The notes below the pieces were generated by a model that saw only the letters and a list, made by a program, of their open reading frames with translations, had not been told where the DNA came from and did not search any database. DNA of 64,000 nucleotides from contig NZ_RAPO01000002.1 in the NCBI RefSeq assembly GCF_003610195.1, forward strand, positions 1,178,001 to 1,242,000, in the 5' to 3' direction. A program made the position numbers and the translations under genes. This DNA comes from Halopiger aswanensis. GTDB lineage: Archaea > Halobacteriota > Halobacteria > Halobacteriales > Natrialbaceae. Shown here piece by piece: positions 2,856 to 63,988 of the stretch (the first letter of the stretch is position 1; each line of letters opens with the position of its first letter).

Positions 2856-5003
2856 ATGAGTGGTATGGCTGCAGCCGAACTGCCGCTCGAGGCGTTCTAC
2901 GATCTCACGCGTATTACGGACCTCGCGGTCTCGCCCGACGGTGATCGGGTCGCGTTCACCGCGACCGAGTACGACCAGCACGAGGACGAGTCCGTCGCCT
3001 CGCTGTTCGTCGTCCCGACCGACGGGAGCCGCGAGCCCCACCGGCTGACGACCGTCGCGGGCGCCTCGAGTCCGGCCTGGAGCCCCTCGGGCGAGGAACT
3101 GGCGTTCCTCGCTGCACGCGAGACTGACGTCGAGCGACGAGTGGGCTGGCAGCGAGATGAGGAGGAAGACGGCGAGGATGCAGACGCTGACGACGGCTCC
3201 GACGAACCGGATAGCGACACCGGCGACGACGGCAACAACGGCGCGGACGACGAACCGAAACCGCAGGTGTGGACCTTCGACCTCGTTCGCGGCGGCGACG
3301 CCCGTCAGGAGACCGACCGCGAGGAGGGCGTCTCGGGGTTCGACTGGTCGCCCGACGGCGACCGGTTCGTCGTCGCCGCGCGCGACCCGACCGACGAGGA
3401 ACAGGAGCAACTCGAGCAGCGCCGCGAGGGCGGGCCGATCGAGACGACGCGGCTCCAGCACAAGGTCGACGGCGTCGGCTGGACGGACGAGGTGACGACC
3501 TACCTGTTCGTCGTCGACCGCGACTCCGGCGAAACCGAGCGCCTCGACGACGCCTACGGCGGCGGATCCTTCCAGGACCTGTACGGGATGGACCCGACCT
3601 GGGGCCCCGACGACCGCATCGCCTTCACCTCGTGTCGGCTCGAGCACCCCGACGACACGCACGTCCGGGACGTCTACGCGATCGATCCCGACGGCGACGG
3701 ACTCGAGCGCCGGACCGACGGCGAGTTGCTCTGTACGGGTCTCAGTTGGCGGGACGACGGGGCGCTCGGTTTCGTCGGCAAGGATCCGGACGACTGGGTG
3801 CGCCCGGCGGCGGCGTTCGTCCACGACGGCGAACGGGTGCGGTCGCTGACGGCGTCGCTCGATCGGACCGTCGCCCAGCAGGGCGGGGTCAATTGGGTCG
3901 CCGACGATCTCTACGCGCTCGTCGGCGACGAGTCGCGGACGCGGCTGGTTCGCGCGACCGACGACGGAGACGACGGCACCGTCGAGCGCACCTTCGAGGC
4001 GCAGGGCGACGACCGCGCCATCGCCGCGTTCGAGGTGTCCGCGGACGGCTCGACCGCCGCGCTCGCGTTTTCTGATCCTCGAGAGGGACTGGACGTCTAC
4101 GCCGTTGCCGTCGACGACCTCGCTGCCGCCGACCGGCCCGATTCGCTGCGACGCCTCTCGCGGGTCAATGCCGCCCTCACCGACGAGTATCCGATGCCGA
4201 CCGTCCGGCGCGTCGAGTGGGAGTCGGACGGCTGGACGATCGACGGCGTCCTCTACCACGATCCGGACGTCGACCTCGATGCCGACGACCCCGAGCCGCT
4301 CGTGGTCGCGATCCACGGCGGCCCGCTGTCGTACGACGAGCCGGTGTTCCGGTTCGCACACGCCGCGCTGACGAGCCGCGGCTACGTCGTCTTCCGGCCG
4401 AACTACCGCGGCGGCGCGTCTCGCGGACGGGCGTTCGCCGAGGAATTGTACGGCCAGTGGGGCACGGTCGAAGTCGAGGACATCGTCGCCGGCGTCGACG
4501 CGCTCGCCGACCGCGGCTGGGTCGACCCGGATCGCGTCTTCGGCTACGGGTTCTCCTACGGCGGGATCGCGCAGGGCTACCTCGTGACGCAGACGGACCT
4601 GTTGACCGCAGCGGTGCCCGAACACGGCATCTACGACCTTCGGTCCGCGTTCGGCACCGACGACTCCCACAACTGGCTGGAAACGGAGTTCGGCCTCCCG
4701 TGGGAGAACCCCGACGCCTACGACGACGCGTCGGCGCTCCTCGAGGCGGACGCGATCGACACGCCGCTGCTGGTCGTGGCCGGCGGCGAGGACTGGCGCT
4801 GTCCGCCCTCGCAGTCGGAACAGCTCTACGTCGCCGCGCGGAAGCAAGACGTCGACGCGAAACTCGTCGTCTATCCCGACGAACACCACAACATCGGCGA
4901 TCCGGATCGGGCGATCGACCGCCTCGAGCGGCTGCTGGAGTGGTACGAGCGACACGATCCGGCGCTCGAGGAGTCGGGCGGCTCCGAATCGAAGACCGAA
5001 TAA
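2856..5003 (+). CDS. S9-family serine peptidase (prolyl oligopeptidase / acylaminoacyl-peptidase type)
   Basis: A 715-residue cytoplasmic peptidase. Residues 1 to about 430 are a beta-propeller with repeated TolB/WD40-like blades (WSPSGEELAF, WSPDGDRFVV), and residues 430-700 are an alpha/beta hydrolase. The nucleophile is Ser567 in GYGFSYGG, followed by Asp646 in GGEDWRCPP and His677 or His678 in DEHHNIGDP, in the right order. A stretch of about 35 acidic residues (around 105-138) is inserted between early blades, a halophilic loop. Likely cleaves short peptides or acyl-amino acids. ATG at 2856 gives MSGMAA; the second Met is also possible. Convergent with pus10, with only 7 bases between the stop codons. 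Confidence 0.93.
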   Translation: MSGMAAAELPLEAFYDLTRITDLAVSPDGDRVAFTATEYDQHEDESVASLFVVPTDGSREPHRLTTVAGASSPAWSPSGEELAFLAARETDVERRVGWQRDEEEDGEDADADDGSDEPDSDTGDDGNNGADDEPKPQVWTFDLVRGGDARQETDREEGVSGFDWSPDGDRFVVAARDPTDEEQEQLEQRREGGPIETTRLQHKVDGVGWTDEVTTYLFVVDRDSGETERLDDAYGGGSFQDLYGMDPTWGPDDRIAFTSCRLEHPDDTHVRDVYAIDPDGDGLERRTDGELLCTGLSWRDDGALGFVGKDPDDWVRPAAAFVHDGERVRSLTASLDRTVAQQGGVNWVADDLYALVGDESRTRLVRATDDGDDGTVERTFEAQGDDRAIAAFEVSADGSTAALAFSDPREGLDVYAVAVDDLAAADRPDSLRRLSRVNAALTDEYPMPTVRRVEWESDGWTIDGVLYHDPDVDLDADDPEPLVVAIHGGPLSYDEPVFRFAHAALTSRGYVVFRPNYRGGASRGRAFAEELYGQWGTVEVEDIVAGVDALADRGWVDPDRVFGYGFSYGGIAQGYLVTQTDLLTAAVPEHGIYDLRSAFGTDDSHNWLETEFGLPWENPDAYDDASALLEADAIDTPLLVVAGGEDWRCPPSQSEQLYVAARKQDVDAKLVVYPDEHHNIGDPDRAIDRLERLLEWYERHDPALEESGGSESKTE

Positions 5004-60552: not shown

Positions 60553-61995
60553 CTACTCGAATCCGTGTCGTTCTCGGTGTGCAGCGAGGAATGCTGCGTG
60601 CGGGCGTTTATCCTCGTCGGCGGGGAGTTGCAGCGGCTCGTCCTCGAGCGCGGCGAACTCCTCGTAGCCCTCGAGGTCCGGCCGGTCGGCGACCAGTACG
60701 CGGTAGTCGTCCGCAATCGCCAGCCAGCCGGCGTCGAACGCCCAGTGGTGGAGCCGACAGAGGGCGAGTCCGTTCCGGACGGCGTCGCGGCCGTTCTCGC
60801 GCTTCGGGTAGATGTGCGCGGCCTCGATATCGCGCGTGCCGTCCGGTGCCTCTCGCGAGGTGCCGCAGATCGCACAGCGGTGCTCGTACGCTGATTTGAC
60901 TTCAGTTCGGAAGGCGCTCGAGCGGACGCGCCGTTGAACGGTCGTATACTCCTCGTCGTCGTCAGTCAGCGGCGGTTCATCGGTATCGTCGTCCACGTCT
61001 TCGGTGACCGATTCCGTAAGCGCCTCGAACGCTGCCGGGTGCTCGAGGTCGAGCCGTTCCATCGTGAACTCGTATACCATGCGGCCGTCTCGAGAGACGT
61101 ACTCGGCGTCGACGACGTCGACCAGGCCCTCGTATCGGAGTTCGTCGCGGTCCGCGGGGTGGTAGAAGAAGTAGACGGGGACGGTCGATCGATCGGCTTG
61201 CTCGACGAGCGCGTTGTTCGCGGCCGTCGGGCGCTGGTCGCCCTTTTCGGGCAGTCCCTCACCGATGTAGGTGAACCGCTCGTCGGCGAGGTCGTCGCCG
61301 TACGGCCCATCTTCGCGGGCTTTGACGACGATGAATTCGAGGTCGCCGTTCTCGTCCGTTCGGGGGTTGATTCCCTTGATGTACGCGCCGAAGTTCGTAC
61401 CGAGCGCCGCCTCGAGTTCGGACTGCGTGTAGAACTCGCCGCGCTCGAGATCGGGAGCGTCGGCCGTACGACGGCGGGCCAGTTCTCGCCCGGCGTCGGT
61501 GAGCGAGTTCAGGCCGTCGGATCGGTCGACGTAGCCGAGGCTCTGCAGCCAGCCGCGGTGTTGTGCGGGGCCGGAGGAATCGTTCCAGTCGACCTCGGCG
61601 TGCTCGGATTCGATCGCGTCACCCAACTCGGCGTCCGTCTCCGGGCCGTCGAGGAGTTCCTCGAGAAGCGTGTCGAACCCGCGAACGTGCTCCGCGAGGA
61701 GTTCGTAGAGCACCGCGGGATCAGTCTCGGAGAGCCACGCCATGCCGCGCTGGGTGAGTCGAACGCGGTCGGGGTCGCGCTCGATCTCGAGCAGTTCGAT
61801 GCCCTCGAGAAACGTGAGTCGGCGCCGAATCCCGTCGTCGCTGGTCGCCCGTGTGTTCGATTCGAGCCAGTCGATCGCCGCCGCTTCGGACGGGGATTCC
61901 GCGAGGACGAATTTGCAGAAGCGCTCGAGGACGTCGGTGTAGTTCCCCGCGCCGCCGAAGAATCGAACCGCGATGGTGCGTTTTCCTCCTCCCAT
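60553..61995 (-). CDS. HNH endonuclease with winged-helix and possible SRA/PUA-like region
   Basis: 480 residues. Two winged-helix-like segments at about 18-90 (VRLTQRGMAWLSE) and 95-175 (LNSLTDAGRELARRR). A beta-rich region at about 185-318 with YIKGINPRTDENGDLEFIVV, FTYIGEGLPEKGDQRPTAAN and VPVYFFYHPADRDELRYEGL reminds me of SRA/PUA-like modified-base readers. The HNH domain (about 365-420) has CAICGTS, Cys374-x2-Cys377, IEAAHIYPKREN with His394, Asn408 in VRNGLALCRLHHWAFDAGW and the final Cys413/His416. This order is like type IV (modification-dependent) restriction enzymes. TATA box at 62029-62040. Confidence 0.82.
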   Translation of the reverse strand: MGGGKRTIAVRFFGGAGNYTDVLERFCKFVLAESPSEAAAIDWLESNTRATSDDGIRRRLTFLEGIELLEIERDPDRVRLTQRGMAWLSETDPAVLYELLAEHVRGFDTLLEELLDGPETDAELGDAIESEHAEVDWNDSSGPAQHRGWLQSLGYVDRSDGLNSLTDAGRELARRRTADAPDLERGEFYTQSELEAALGTNFGAYIKGINPRTDENGDLEFIVVKAREDGPYGDDLADERFTYIGEGLPEKGDQRPTAANNALVEQADRSTVPVYFFYHPADRDELRYEGLVDVVDAEYVSRDGRMVYEFTMERLDLEHPAAFEALTESVTEDVDDDTDEPPLTDDDEEYTTVQRRVRSSAFRTEVKSAYEHRCAICGTSREAPDGTRDIEAAHIYPKRENGRDAVRNGLALCRLHHWAFDAGWLAIADDYRVLVADRPDLEGYEEFAALEDEPLQLPADEDKRPHAAFLAAHRERHGFE

Positions 61996-62028
61996 CCGTG
62001 TTGATACTCGTCCCGTGTGTGGGGGTTC

Positions 62029-62040
62029 GTATAAAATACG
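62029..62040 (-). promoter_or_regulatory. TATA box of the HNH gene
   Basis: GTATAAAATACG, read TTTATA-like on the minus strand, about 35-45 bases before the ATG at 61995. Confidence 0.5.
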
Positions 62041-62072
62041 TGGTAACTAGCGAGGGGAGACTGATTTGGAGT

Positions 62073-62116
62073 GATGAGAGTGGAGTGGTGAGAGGATGAG
62101 AGTGGAGTGGTGAGAG
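62073..62116. repeat. 22-bp perfect direct repeat
   Basis: Two adjacent copies (62073-62094 and 62095-62116) beginning GATGAGAGTGGAGTGG. Purine-biased on the plus strand. Not related to the 20-bp element. Confidence 0.85.
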
Positions 62117-62157
62117 ATCGAACCGCCGTGCACCGCCTCCAATCGTCGCTTGTGAGA

Positions 62158-62177
62158 ACACACCACCGCTGCAAGTG
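62158..62177 (+). repeat. Origin-type 20-bp element, copy 1
   Basis: ACACCACCGCTGCAAGTGAA; 18 of 20 matches to the consensus ACACCACTGTTGCAAGTGAA. Confidence 0.7.
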
Positions 62178-62221
62178 AATTGTGATTCAGACACAAATAC
62201 ACAAGTACGCGCGACCGATCC

Positions 62222-62241
62222 CCACCACTCGTTCATGTGAA
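62222..62241 (+). repeat. Origin-type 20-bp element, degenerate copy 2
   Basis: CCACCACTCGTTCATGTGAA; about 15 of 20 matches, 6 bases before copy 3. Confidence 0.45.
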
Positions 62242-62247
62242 CGACCC

Positions 62248-62267
62248 ACACCACCGATGCACGTGAA
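62248..62267 (+). repeat. Origin-type 20-bp element, copy 3
   Basis: ACACCACCGATGCACGTGAA; 17 of 20 matches, followed by ACT as in the extended motif. Confidence 0.65.
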
Positions 62268-62381
62268 ACTCGAGTCGAGTCCGCGCGGGGGGAACGCGGT
62301 CCGTCCTCGAGTCCGATTGACTCGAGACGGGGAACTCAGCCTCGAGACGTGGAAATTCGGTGCATCGAGACCCCTTCGGAG

Positions 62382-62401
62382 ACACCACTGTTGCAAGTGA
62401 A
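62382..62401 (+). repeat. Origin-type 20-bp element, copy 4 (consensus)
   Basis: ACACCACTGTTGCAAGTGAA. It faces an inverted copy 29 bases away. Confidence 0.75.
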
Positions 62402-62430
62402 GACCGAAGACAGCGTGGCAGTACGTCCCG

Positions 62431-62450
62431 TTCACTCGAAAGAGTGGTGT
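62431..62450 (-). repeat. Origin-type 20-bp element, inverted copy 5
   Basis: Read on minus: ACACCACTCTTTCGAGTGAA, 17 of 20 matches. It lies 15 bases past the stop codon of orc1/cdc6. Confidence 0.65.
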
Positions 62451-62465
62451 GGCAACGGGGCCGAC

Positions 62466-63692
62466 TCAGGCGACCCCGTTCATCCGGGCGATGTCGCGAA
62501 TCGTCTCGATCTCGTCGTCGAGGTAGAGCACGTCCGCCATCGCGTCCACGGCGCTCGAGAAGGGAACGTCGAGTTCGTAGCTGTAGTAGTTGCCCCGAGA
62601 GCCGCTGCGATTTTCCTTCGCGGAGAGGATGCCGAGCATCCGGAGGTCCGAGAGGTGGTTGTGCACCGAGCGCTGGGCGAGCGAGTCAGTGCCGGAGGAC
62701 TCGCAGAGCGTCTCGTACTCCTGATAGAGTTCCCGCGTCCGGCAGGGCGTCGACTCCTTGGCCGCCTTCGAGACGACCGCCAGCAGGGCGAGGCGACCGT
62801 GGGTCGTCAGTTCCCGCATCCCCTCCTCGACGCGTTCCTGCTCGAGTTTGGAGCGGGCCTGATCGACGTGGTCCTCGCGGATGATCTCGTCGTCGTTGTT
62901 CTCCGCGACTTCGCCCGCGAGCCGGAGCAAGTCGAGCGCCTGCCGTGCGCTCCCGCTGTCGCGGGCCGCGAGTGCGGCACAGAGATTGAGGACGCCGGTC
63001 TCACAGGCGTCCTCGGCGATGGCGACCTCGGCTCGAGACTCGAGGATGTTGGTCAGTTCGTCGGCCTCGTAGGGCGGAAACTGCAGTTCGCGCTCGCAGA
63101 GGGTGTCCTGCACCCGCGGATCGAGCTGCTCGCGGAACTTGAAGTCGTTGCTGATCCCGATGAGGCCGACCTTCGTCGCCTCGAGGTAGCCGTTCGAGCG
63201 GGCGCGGGGGAGTTCGTAGAGCAGTTCGTCGCGGTCGCCGATCGAGTCGATCTCGTCCAAGACGATGACGACCGTGCCGCCGAGCGCCTCGAGTTCGCTG
63301 TAGAGTTTCTTGAAGACGGTCTGTTGGGGGTAGCCCGTCGTACTGATTTCGGCGCCGTCGGGGCGGAGGGTGTTGACGAGTTCGATCGCGACCTGGTAGG
63401 AGGAGTTCAGGGTCTTGCAGTTGACGCTAAGAACGGAGAGATCGACGTCGTCGTACTCGGTGACGTCCTCCTGCAGAACGTCGAGGAGGTATTCGGTGAC
63501 CGCGGTCTTCCCGACGCCGGTGTTCCCGTAGAGAAAGATGTTGTTCGGTTCCCAGCCGTCGATGATGGGCTGGAGCGCGTCCATGTAGGCCTCGATCTCC
63601 TCGTCCCGTTCTTCGATCCGTTCGGGCTGATACGACTCCCCCAGGGCGTCCTTGTTTCTGAAGATGTTCTGCTTCCGCTCGAACCGAGGCAT
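62466..63692 (-). CDS. orc1/cdc6: Orc1/Cdc6 replication initiator
   Basis: A 408-residue AAA+ initiator. It begins MPRFERKQNIFRNKDALGES, with YQPERIEERDEEIEAYMDAL as usual for haloarchaeal Orc. Walker A is FLYGNTGVGKTAV, Walker B is VVIVLDEIDSIGD, and sensor 1 GLIGISND follows. Arg-rich sensor 2 lies in DSGSARQALDLLR. The C-terminal winged helix (about 315-400) has AQRSVHNHLSDLRMLGILSA. A TATA-like ACTATTTAAAACC at 63713-63725 precedes the start by about 21 bases. Repeats on both sides mark it as the initiator of an adjacent origin. Which of the several haloarchaeal Orc groups it belongs to cannot be told here. Confidence 0.95.
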   Translation of the reverse strand: MPRFERKQNIFRNKDALGESYQPERIEERDEEIEAYMDALQPIIDGWEPNNIFLYGNTGVGKTAVTEYLLDVLQEDVTEYDDVDLSVLSVNCKTLNSSYQVAIELVNTLRPDGAEISTTGYPQQTVFKKLYSELEALGGTVVIVLDEIDSIGDRDELLYELPRARSNGYLEATKVGLIGISNDFKFREQLDPRVQDTLCERELQFPPYEADELTNILESRAEVAIAEDACETGVLNLCAALAARDSGSARQALDLLRLAGEVAENNDDEIIREDHVDQARSKLEQERVEEGMRELTTHGRLALLAVVSKAAKESTPCRTRELYQEYETLCESSGTDSLAQRSVHNHLSDLRMLGILSAKENRSGSRGNYYSYELDVPFSSAVDAMADVLYLDDEIETIRDIARMNGVA

Positions 63693-63729
63693 ACCCCTAC
63701 CAAGAGAGAAGTACTATTTAAAACCACTT

Positions 63730-63749
63730 TTTCATCTGATGCAAGTGAA
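63730..63749 (+). repeat. Origin-type 20-bp element, degenerate copy 6
   Basis: TTTCATCTGATGCAAGTGAA; the 3' half matches perfectly (15 of 20 overall), 7 bases before copy 7. Confidence 0.45.
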
Positions 63750-63756
63750 CTCAGAC

Positions 63757-63776
63757 ACACCACTGTTTCACGTGAA
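63757..63776 (+). repeat. Origin-type 20-bp element, copy 7
   Basis: ACACCACTGTTTCACGTGAA; 18 of 20 matches, preceded by CAGAC as at copy 8. Confidence 0.7.
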
Positions 63777-63968
63777 GCTAGTATTCGAGGGACTAGAAGG
63801 AAGAGCAGTCCACGATTTCATCTAAAACGCTGACAAATCCTCGAGAGTGGCCAAACTGTCGAATTAGGCCATACTGGCGCCATATCGTGGCCTTCACCAG
63901 TTTCGATAGATCGTCGACCGACCGTCGAACTACCGTCTCCCCCGCTCCCCTACCCACCGTCACACAGT

Positions 63969-63988
63969 TTCACTTGCAACGGTGGTGT
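63969..63988 (-). repeat. Origin-type 20-bp element, inverted copy 8
   Basis: On minus: ACACCACCGTTGCAAGTGAA, 19 of 20 matches, with the extended flanks CAGAC before and ACTG after, as in copy 7. Confidence 0.75.

What the first reader, a model, noticed from the sequence alone, without database searches (positions are those of the whole stretch)
62158..63988. Eight copies of a 20-bp element around orc1/cdc6: probable replication origin
ACACCACTGTTGCAAGTGAA and close variants occur on both sides of the initiator gene. Six are on the plus strand and two are inverted, giving inward-facing pairs at 62382/62431 and 63757/63969. The element is longer where it is strongest (CAGACACACCAC...GTGAAACT). 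Origin recognition boxes in haloarchaea are repeats of this kind next to their cognate orc gene, but this consensus does not look like the oriC1-type box with its G-rich end that I remember, so it may belong to a different Orc specificity group.
Basis: partly seen in the sequence, partly recalled or inferred. Interest (0 to 1): 0.7.

Follow-up and report, generated by a model that had tools for sequence, protein, structure and literature searches.

The report
Plasmid-type replication origin beside orc gene
A salt-loving archaeon carries, on both sides of a replication-initiator gene, a set of short DNA repeats that accompany this initiator across dozens of species and plasmids, so this is almost certainly a replication origin of a known general kind with its own recognition sequence, though whether it fires in this chromosome is untested.

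Summary
All consensus-quality copies of the 20-bp element in a 4.87-Mb genome lie within 1.83 kb around one orc1/cdc6 gene (62466-63692, minus strand). Of the eight copies, six lie on the plus strand and two are inverted; the eighth (63730-63749) matches only in its right half. The element travels with this Orc. Of 292 haloarchaeal genomes, 57 of 58 with the orthologue have two or more exact-pattern copies, against 5 of 234 without it. Orthologues from several families share one layout: an inverted pair about 200 bp apart upstream of orc in an AT-richer stretch, and a one-plus-several array downstream. Fourteen paralogous Orc loci in the same genome lack the element, and many have other repeats. 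The family also sits on complete circular plasmids. Best reading: a haloarchaeal orc-adjacent origin with its own Orc/ORB specificity, possibly with a downstream titration or autoregulation array. On the opposite strand the box (TTCACTTGCAACRGTGGTGT) resembles the oriC1 ORB, with an interrupted G-rich end. No GC-skew switch is seen here, although one is seen at oriC1, so activity in this chromosome is unproven: it may be weak, dormant or recently acquired. It is a new member of a known kind.

The parts
62466..63692 (-). orc1/cdc6 initiator gene, 408 aa (AAA+, Cdc6 lid, C-terminal winged helix)
   Evidence: Pfam Cdc6_lid 2.2e-24 and Cdc6_C 1.6e-22; TIGR02928 471 bits; nearest solved structures S. 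solfataricus Cdc6-1 2qby_A 4.5e-70 and 2v1u_A 1.7e-64
63969..63988 (-). ORB, outer member of the upstream inverted pair (ACACCACCGTTGCAAGTGAA)
   Evidence: counterpart near -290 in most orthologues
63757..63776 (+). ORB, inner member of the upstream inverted pair (ACACCACTGTTTCACGTGAA)
   Evidence: counterpart near -84 to -92 in most orthologues
63777..63968 (.). interval between the upstream pair, AT-enriched; candidate unwinding region
   Evidence: 47% AT in the stretch tested (-270 to -69 from orc) against 36% in orc; AT higher than in orc in nearly all orthologues
   Evidence: de novo 18-mer search; block conserved in the four Natrinema-group loci printed
63721..63740 (+). degenerate box (AAACCACTTTTTCATCTGAT, 3 mismatches) overlapping the half box and touching the TATA-like element
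   Evidence: at -48 in WIN, L036-L038, L048
63715..63723 (-). archaeal TATA-like element TTTTAAATA, centre about 27 bp before the orc ATG; suggests a leaderless transcript
   Evidence: sequence; TTTAAATA retained in L032, L034, L035, L036; promoter function inferred
62431..62450 (-). downstream box (ACACCACTCTTTCGAGTGAA), faces the next
62382..62401 (+). downstream box (ACACCACTGTTGCAAGTGAA)
62248..62267 (+). downstream box (ACACCACCGATGCACGTGAA)
62222..62241 (+). downstream degenerate box (CCACCACTCGTTCATGTGAA)
   Evidence: (+225)
62160..62179 (+). downstream box (ACACCACCGCTGCAAGTGAA)
61996..62465 (.). downstream intergenic region holding the five-box array; candidate initiator-titration region
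   Evidence: positions; function by analogy with oriC2D (PMC3936714)

Best explanation
This is an orc1/cdc6-adjacent replication origin of a haloarchaeon. The 20-bp element is the origin recognition box (ORB) of the Orc protein encoded between its copies. Most likely mechanism: Orc binds the upstream inverted pair (63757/63969, about 200 bp apart, GTGAA ends facing inward) and helps open the AT-richer stretch between them, where MCM is loaded. The five-box array downstream of orc binds further Orc and so buffers initiation, as described for oriC2D of Haloarcula hispanica. Boxes next to the orc TATA-like element probably also let Orc regulate its own leaderless gene. Shown here: the boxes, their tight linkage to this Orc clade, the conserved layout, and their absence at paralogous Orc loci. 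Inferred: binding, unwinding, titration and autoregulation. How often the origin fires in this chromosome is open.
For: Genome-wide clustering in two genomes: all perfect matches lie at the orc in the own genome and in a second genome of the genus, where it sits on a 3.67-Mb contig. Linkage to the Orc clade: in 292 genomes, 2 or more exact copies in 57/58 with the Orc against 5/234 without (Fisher p about 1.5e-53, genomes not independent). Two of those five have a truncated remnant of the same orc beside the boxes. Architecture: upstream + at about -290 and - at about -88, downstream one + then tandem - boxes, from Natrinema to Haloplanus, Halorubrum, Haloarcula and Halalkalicoccus. De novo words: ACCAC-8-GTGAA in at least 3 copies in 21/23 loci, shuffles at most 1. 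Paralogous Orc loci in the same genome lack the element and many have other repeats; boxes change with Orc divergence, e.g. GTGTT at 54% identity. Family members on complete circular plasmids, including 41-kb pJCM16430-01, where it is the only Orc and the boxes occur only around it. Inter-pair DNA is AT-enriched.
Against: No GC-skew sign change at this orc in 400 kb of either genome, whereas the same measure peaks 6 kb from the oriC1 orc. In G001 the locus lies about 40 kb from a local skew minimum, terminus-like rather than origin-like. The long uninterrupted G-string stressed for haloarchaeal ORBs is missing. No binding, ARS or replication-profile data exist for this locus. Skew on two plasmids of the family gives no clear origin signal.
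Confidence: 0.86

Rival explanations
1. A silent or dormant origin: boxes and Orc form a competent origin, kept with the gene, that rarely fires in this chromosome because oriC1 and others dominate. (A sub-case of the best explanation; its confidence overlaps with it.)
For: No skew switch here while oriC1 shows one. Ori-associated Orcs without ARS activity, and dormant origins, are documented in H. hispanica and Hfx. mediterranei (PMC3528665, PMC4595724).
Against: Boxes are strongly conserved across the Natrinema group at a syntenic chromosomal site, which suggests continued use. Skew is a weak, long-term signal.
Confidence: 0.4
2. The boxes are only operators: Orc binds them to autoregulate its own gene and neighbours, without origin function.
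For: Half and degenerate boxes lie next to the orc TATA-like element (63715-63723).
Against: The outer upstream box about 290 bp away and the downstream array are not needed for an operator. The same module sits on circular plasmids, in one case as the only Orc.
Confidence: 0.08
3. The element is a binding site of some other protein or a mobile repeat that happens to lie beside orc.
For: A few clusters occur without an Orc of this clade (G018, G282, G100).
Against: 57/58 against 5/234 association; no scattering through the genome; all 66 viral-contig hits are single copies.
Confidence: 0.03

Closest known systems
Haloarchaeal orc/cdc6-adjacent origins (Wu et al. 2012, PMC3528665), non-oriC1 families
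   Same: ORB repeats in the intergenic regions beside one orc gene, inverted pair, family-specific box linked to family-specific Orc, on chromosomes and plasmids
   Different: G-rich end interrupted (GGTGGTGT). The sequence logos and supplementary list could not be read, so I cannot say under which label this family appears. Its H. marismortui pNG500, H. turkmenica pHTUR04 and H. jeotgali plasmid 2 members lie on plasmids where that paper scored every Orc as origin-associated
oriC1 of haloarchaea
   Same: Inverted boxes with C-rich ends outward and TGGA/GTGAA ends inward; core T-C-A-TTG-AAC shared on the opposite strand
   Different: Different Orc (42% identical over part of the protein; 568 aa), different box, long G-string at oriC1, skew switch at oriC1 only
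oriC2/oriC2D of Haloarcula hispanica (PMC3936714)
   Same: Origin upstream of orc plus a box-rich region just downstream
   Different: oriC2D has 11 boxes in 722 bp and was shown to repress oriC2; here five boxes and no test; whether the Orcs belong together was not established

Membership tests
haloarchaeal orc-adjacent replication origin | repeated ORB-like boxes in the intergenic regions directly adjacent to orc1/cdc6 | tested here: met
haloarchaeal orc-adjacent replication origin | inverted box pair flanking an AT-rich stretch | tested here: met
   63757+/63969-, 47% AT against 36% in orc; modest enrichment
haloarchaeal orc-adjacent replication origin | box specific to the adjacent Orc family | tested here: met
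haloarchaeal orc-adjacent replication origin | halophile G-string at the end of the box | tested here: inconclusive
   interrupted GGTGGTGT on the opposite strand instead of a run of G
haloarchaeal orc-adjacent replication origin | autonomous replication, marker-frequency peak, Orc binding | not testable with these tools
   needs experiments
haloarchaeal orc-adjacent replication origin | strand-composition switch at the origin (supportive sign, not part of the definition) | tested here: not met
   no GC-skew sign change, control positive
oriC1 | oriC1-type Orc and canonical ORB with long G-string | tested here: not met
   the oriC1-type locus is at C3:502634 with CTCCAGTTGAAACGAAGGGGTGGGG boxes
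oriCa family (Wu 2012) | Orc at least 80% identical to Halobacterium orc10 | tested here: inconclusive
   H. salinarum DSM 3754 best intact hit 50%; strains R1/NRC-1 not searched
oriC2/oriC2D-type negative control | box-rich region downstream of orc that lowers origin activity | not testable with these tools
   downstream array present; effect untested

The most novel reading that the evidence does not exclude
A plasmid-type origin was captured next to gnd in the chromosome of the Natrinema group and kept there, boxes intact, as a low-activity origin restrained by its own downstream box array, without leaving a strand-composition footprint.
Probability: 0.3. Interest if true: 0.5.

Novelty: new member of a known kind. 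Interest (0 to 1): 0.33.

Why it matters
It gives a clean Orc/ORB specificity pair (Orc clade plus ACACCAC-N5-CANGTGAA) whose presence can be predicted from either partner in hundreds of genomes, and a graded series of boxes as the Orc diverges. That makes the recognition code of archaeal initiators, and the question why conserved secondary origins are kept in haloarchaeal chromosomes, testable.

Tried and rejected
Literature search for the motif letters: the 20 of 193 papers listed were unrelated. Viral collection: 66 single-copy hits, no clusters, so not a viral element. GC skew on two plasmids: no clear extremum at orc. Matching the J7 vectors of PMC5350488 to this locus: J7 oriC7/oriC8 flank a gap of exactly 1227 bp, the length of this gene, but the flank lengths do not fit the N. 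gari box positions and J7 could not be fetched; left open. Rejected: scattered repeat; oriC1 membership. Bacterial promoter and terminator scan: nothing, as expected for an archaeon. No structure was predicted; it would not have decided between the readings.

Full report
Observation. ACACCACTGTTGCAAGTGAA has six copies within three mismatches in the window, all at 62160-63988, with 0.00 expected. A degenerate form searched in the whole 4.87-Mb genome has five perfect matches, all here; a sixth and seventh local copy have two and three mismatches, and the seven other sites (2-3 mismatches) are scattered.

The gene between them. 62466-63692 on the minus strand encodes a 408-aa Orc1/Cdc6 protein, whose nearest solved relatives are S. 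solfataricus Cdc6-1 (2qby) and 2v1u. The genome has 17 Cdc6-lid matches. Fourteen other Orc loci were read: none has the element within two mismatches. Many have their own repeats, among them an oriC1-type pair at L070; the weakest show little more than chance repeats.

Linkage across species. Orthologues from 36 loci of named genomes and from plasmids were scanned. From about 72% identity upward nearly all carry the boxes in one layout: upstream a + box near -290 and a - box near -88 from the orc start, downstream one + box followed by several - boxes. Haladaptatus and Haloarchaeobius shift most boxes upstream. Without any prior pattern, the word ACCAC-8-GTGAA appears in three or more copies in 21 of 23 dereplicated loci, shuffles at most one. 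In a survey of 292 genomes of the class, 58 have the Orc. Two or more exact copies of the pattern occur in 57 of those 58 and in 5 of the 234 others (counted by hand from the tables; Fisher p about 1.5e-53; genomes are related, so the p-value is nominal). Two of the five have a truncated remnant of this orc beside the boxes.

Boxes follow Orc divergence. At 54% identity (Halarchaeum) the box ends in GTGTT rather than GTGAA. At 52% (Natronorubrum) it is ACCACCGATTCAAACGTT and at 58% (Halorubrum pR1SE2) ACCCCACCGTGTCGAGTG; at 43% no resemblance is found. The left ACCAC part changes less than the right part. From established knowledge of archaeal Orc-DNA structures, the winged helix reads one part of the box and the AAA+ domain the G-rich end; assigning the halves here is inference.

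Relation to oriC1. The opposite strand of the consensus is TTCACTTGCAACRGTGGTGT. The oriC1 box of the same genome reads CTCCAGTTGAAACGAAGGGGTGGGG. They share T-C-A-TTG-AAC in register and a G-rich end that is interrupted here. In both, the G-rich ends face out and the other ends face in. The Orc and the G-string do differ. The alignment was made by eye and not tested statistically.

Where it lives. In the own genome the locus lies on a 1.43-Mb contig beside genes that read as gnd, dCTP deaminase and aconitase (names by inspection). gnd is upstream of orc in every Natrinema-group locus with enough flank. In the second genome of the genus it is on a 3.67-Mb contig. Elsewhere it is often on plasmids: pNG500, pHTUR04, pNATPE01, H. 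jeotgali plasmid 2, pNYT2, pJCM16430-01. On the 41-kb circle pJCM16430-01 it is the only Orc, accompanied by ParA, and boxes occur only around it. That plasmid also encodes a protein with an NrS-1 polymerase helix-bundle domain, so another replication protein is not excluded there.

Skew. In 400 kb around the locus, GC skew does not change sign at orc in either genome. At the oriC1 orc of the second genome the cumulative skew peaks 6 kb away. So this origin has left no strand-composition footprint: it may be weak, dormant, recently placed, or used too evenly with others.

Mechanism. Best supported: Orc binds the upstream inverted pair and opens the AT-richer DNA between (47% against 36% AT). 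The downstream five-box array may titrate Orc as oriC2D does for Cdc6E in H. hispanica, where 11 boxes in 722 bp lower oriC2 activity (PMC3936714). A TATA-like TTTTAAATA at 63715-63723, about 27 bp before the ATG, suggests a leaderless orc transcript, and half or degenerate boxes abut it, so autoregulation is plausible. None of these steps was tested.

Known kind. Wu et al. 2012 (PMC3528665) predicted 102 such origins in 15 haloarchaea, each Orc family with its own ORB. The H. marismortui pNG500, H. turkmenica pHTUR04 and H. jeotgali plasmid 2 homologues of this Orc lie on replicons where all Orcs were scored as origin-associated (table), so the family was probably in their set. I could not read their logos. 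It is filed as a new member of a known kind.

Noticed in passing
L206 (G282:C15) 3572+ / 3770-: A perfect inverted box pair with the family's 200-bp spacing but no Orc of this clade in the genome (best 38% identity); possibly an origin whose orc was lost.
   Followed up: partly
L207 (G018:C1) 3514-4309: Five perfect boxes (TTCACGTGAA type, ++ --- inward) with no Orc nearby, just before a GDP-mannose-dehydratase/epimerase-like gene; the genome has a 56% Orc elsewhere with one box about 1.2 kb upstream.
   Followed up: partly
L208 (G069:C1) 3737-4126; L210 (G217:C16) 3817-4672: Boxes beside truncated C-terminal remnants of the same orc (78 and 247 residues), i.e. decaying copies of the origin.
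   Followed up: partly
G000:C2:1026402-1086401 (outside the window): About 60 kb of markedly lower GC (0.49-0.53 against 0.65-0.68), with two diverged short Cdc6-lid genes; probably an integrated element.
   Followed up: no
window 60553-61995 (-): HNH protein related to phosphorothioated-DNA-dependent restriction enzymes (below the family cut-off) directly beyond the downstream array; no match found beside the orc in Natrinema hispanicum CDM_6.
   Followed up: partly
L049: A contig labelled Mollicutes MAG carries this haloarchaeal orc and boxes; it looks mis-binned.
   Followed up: no
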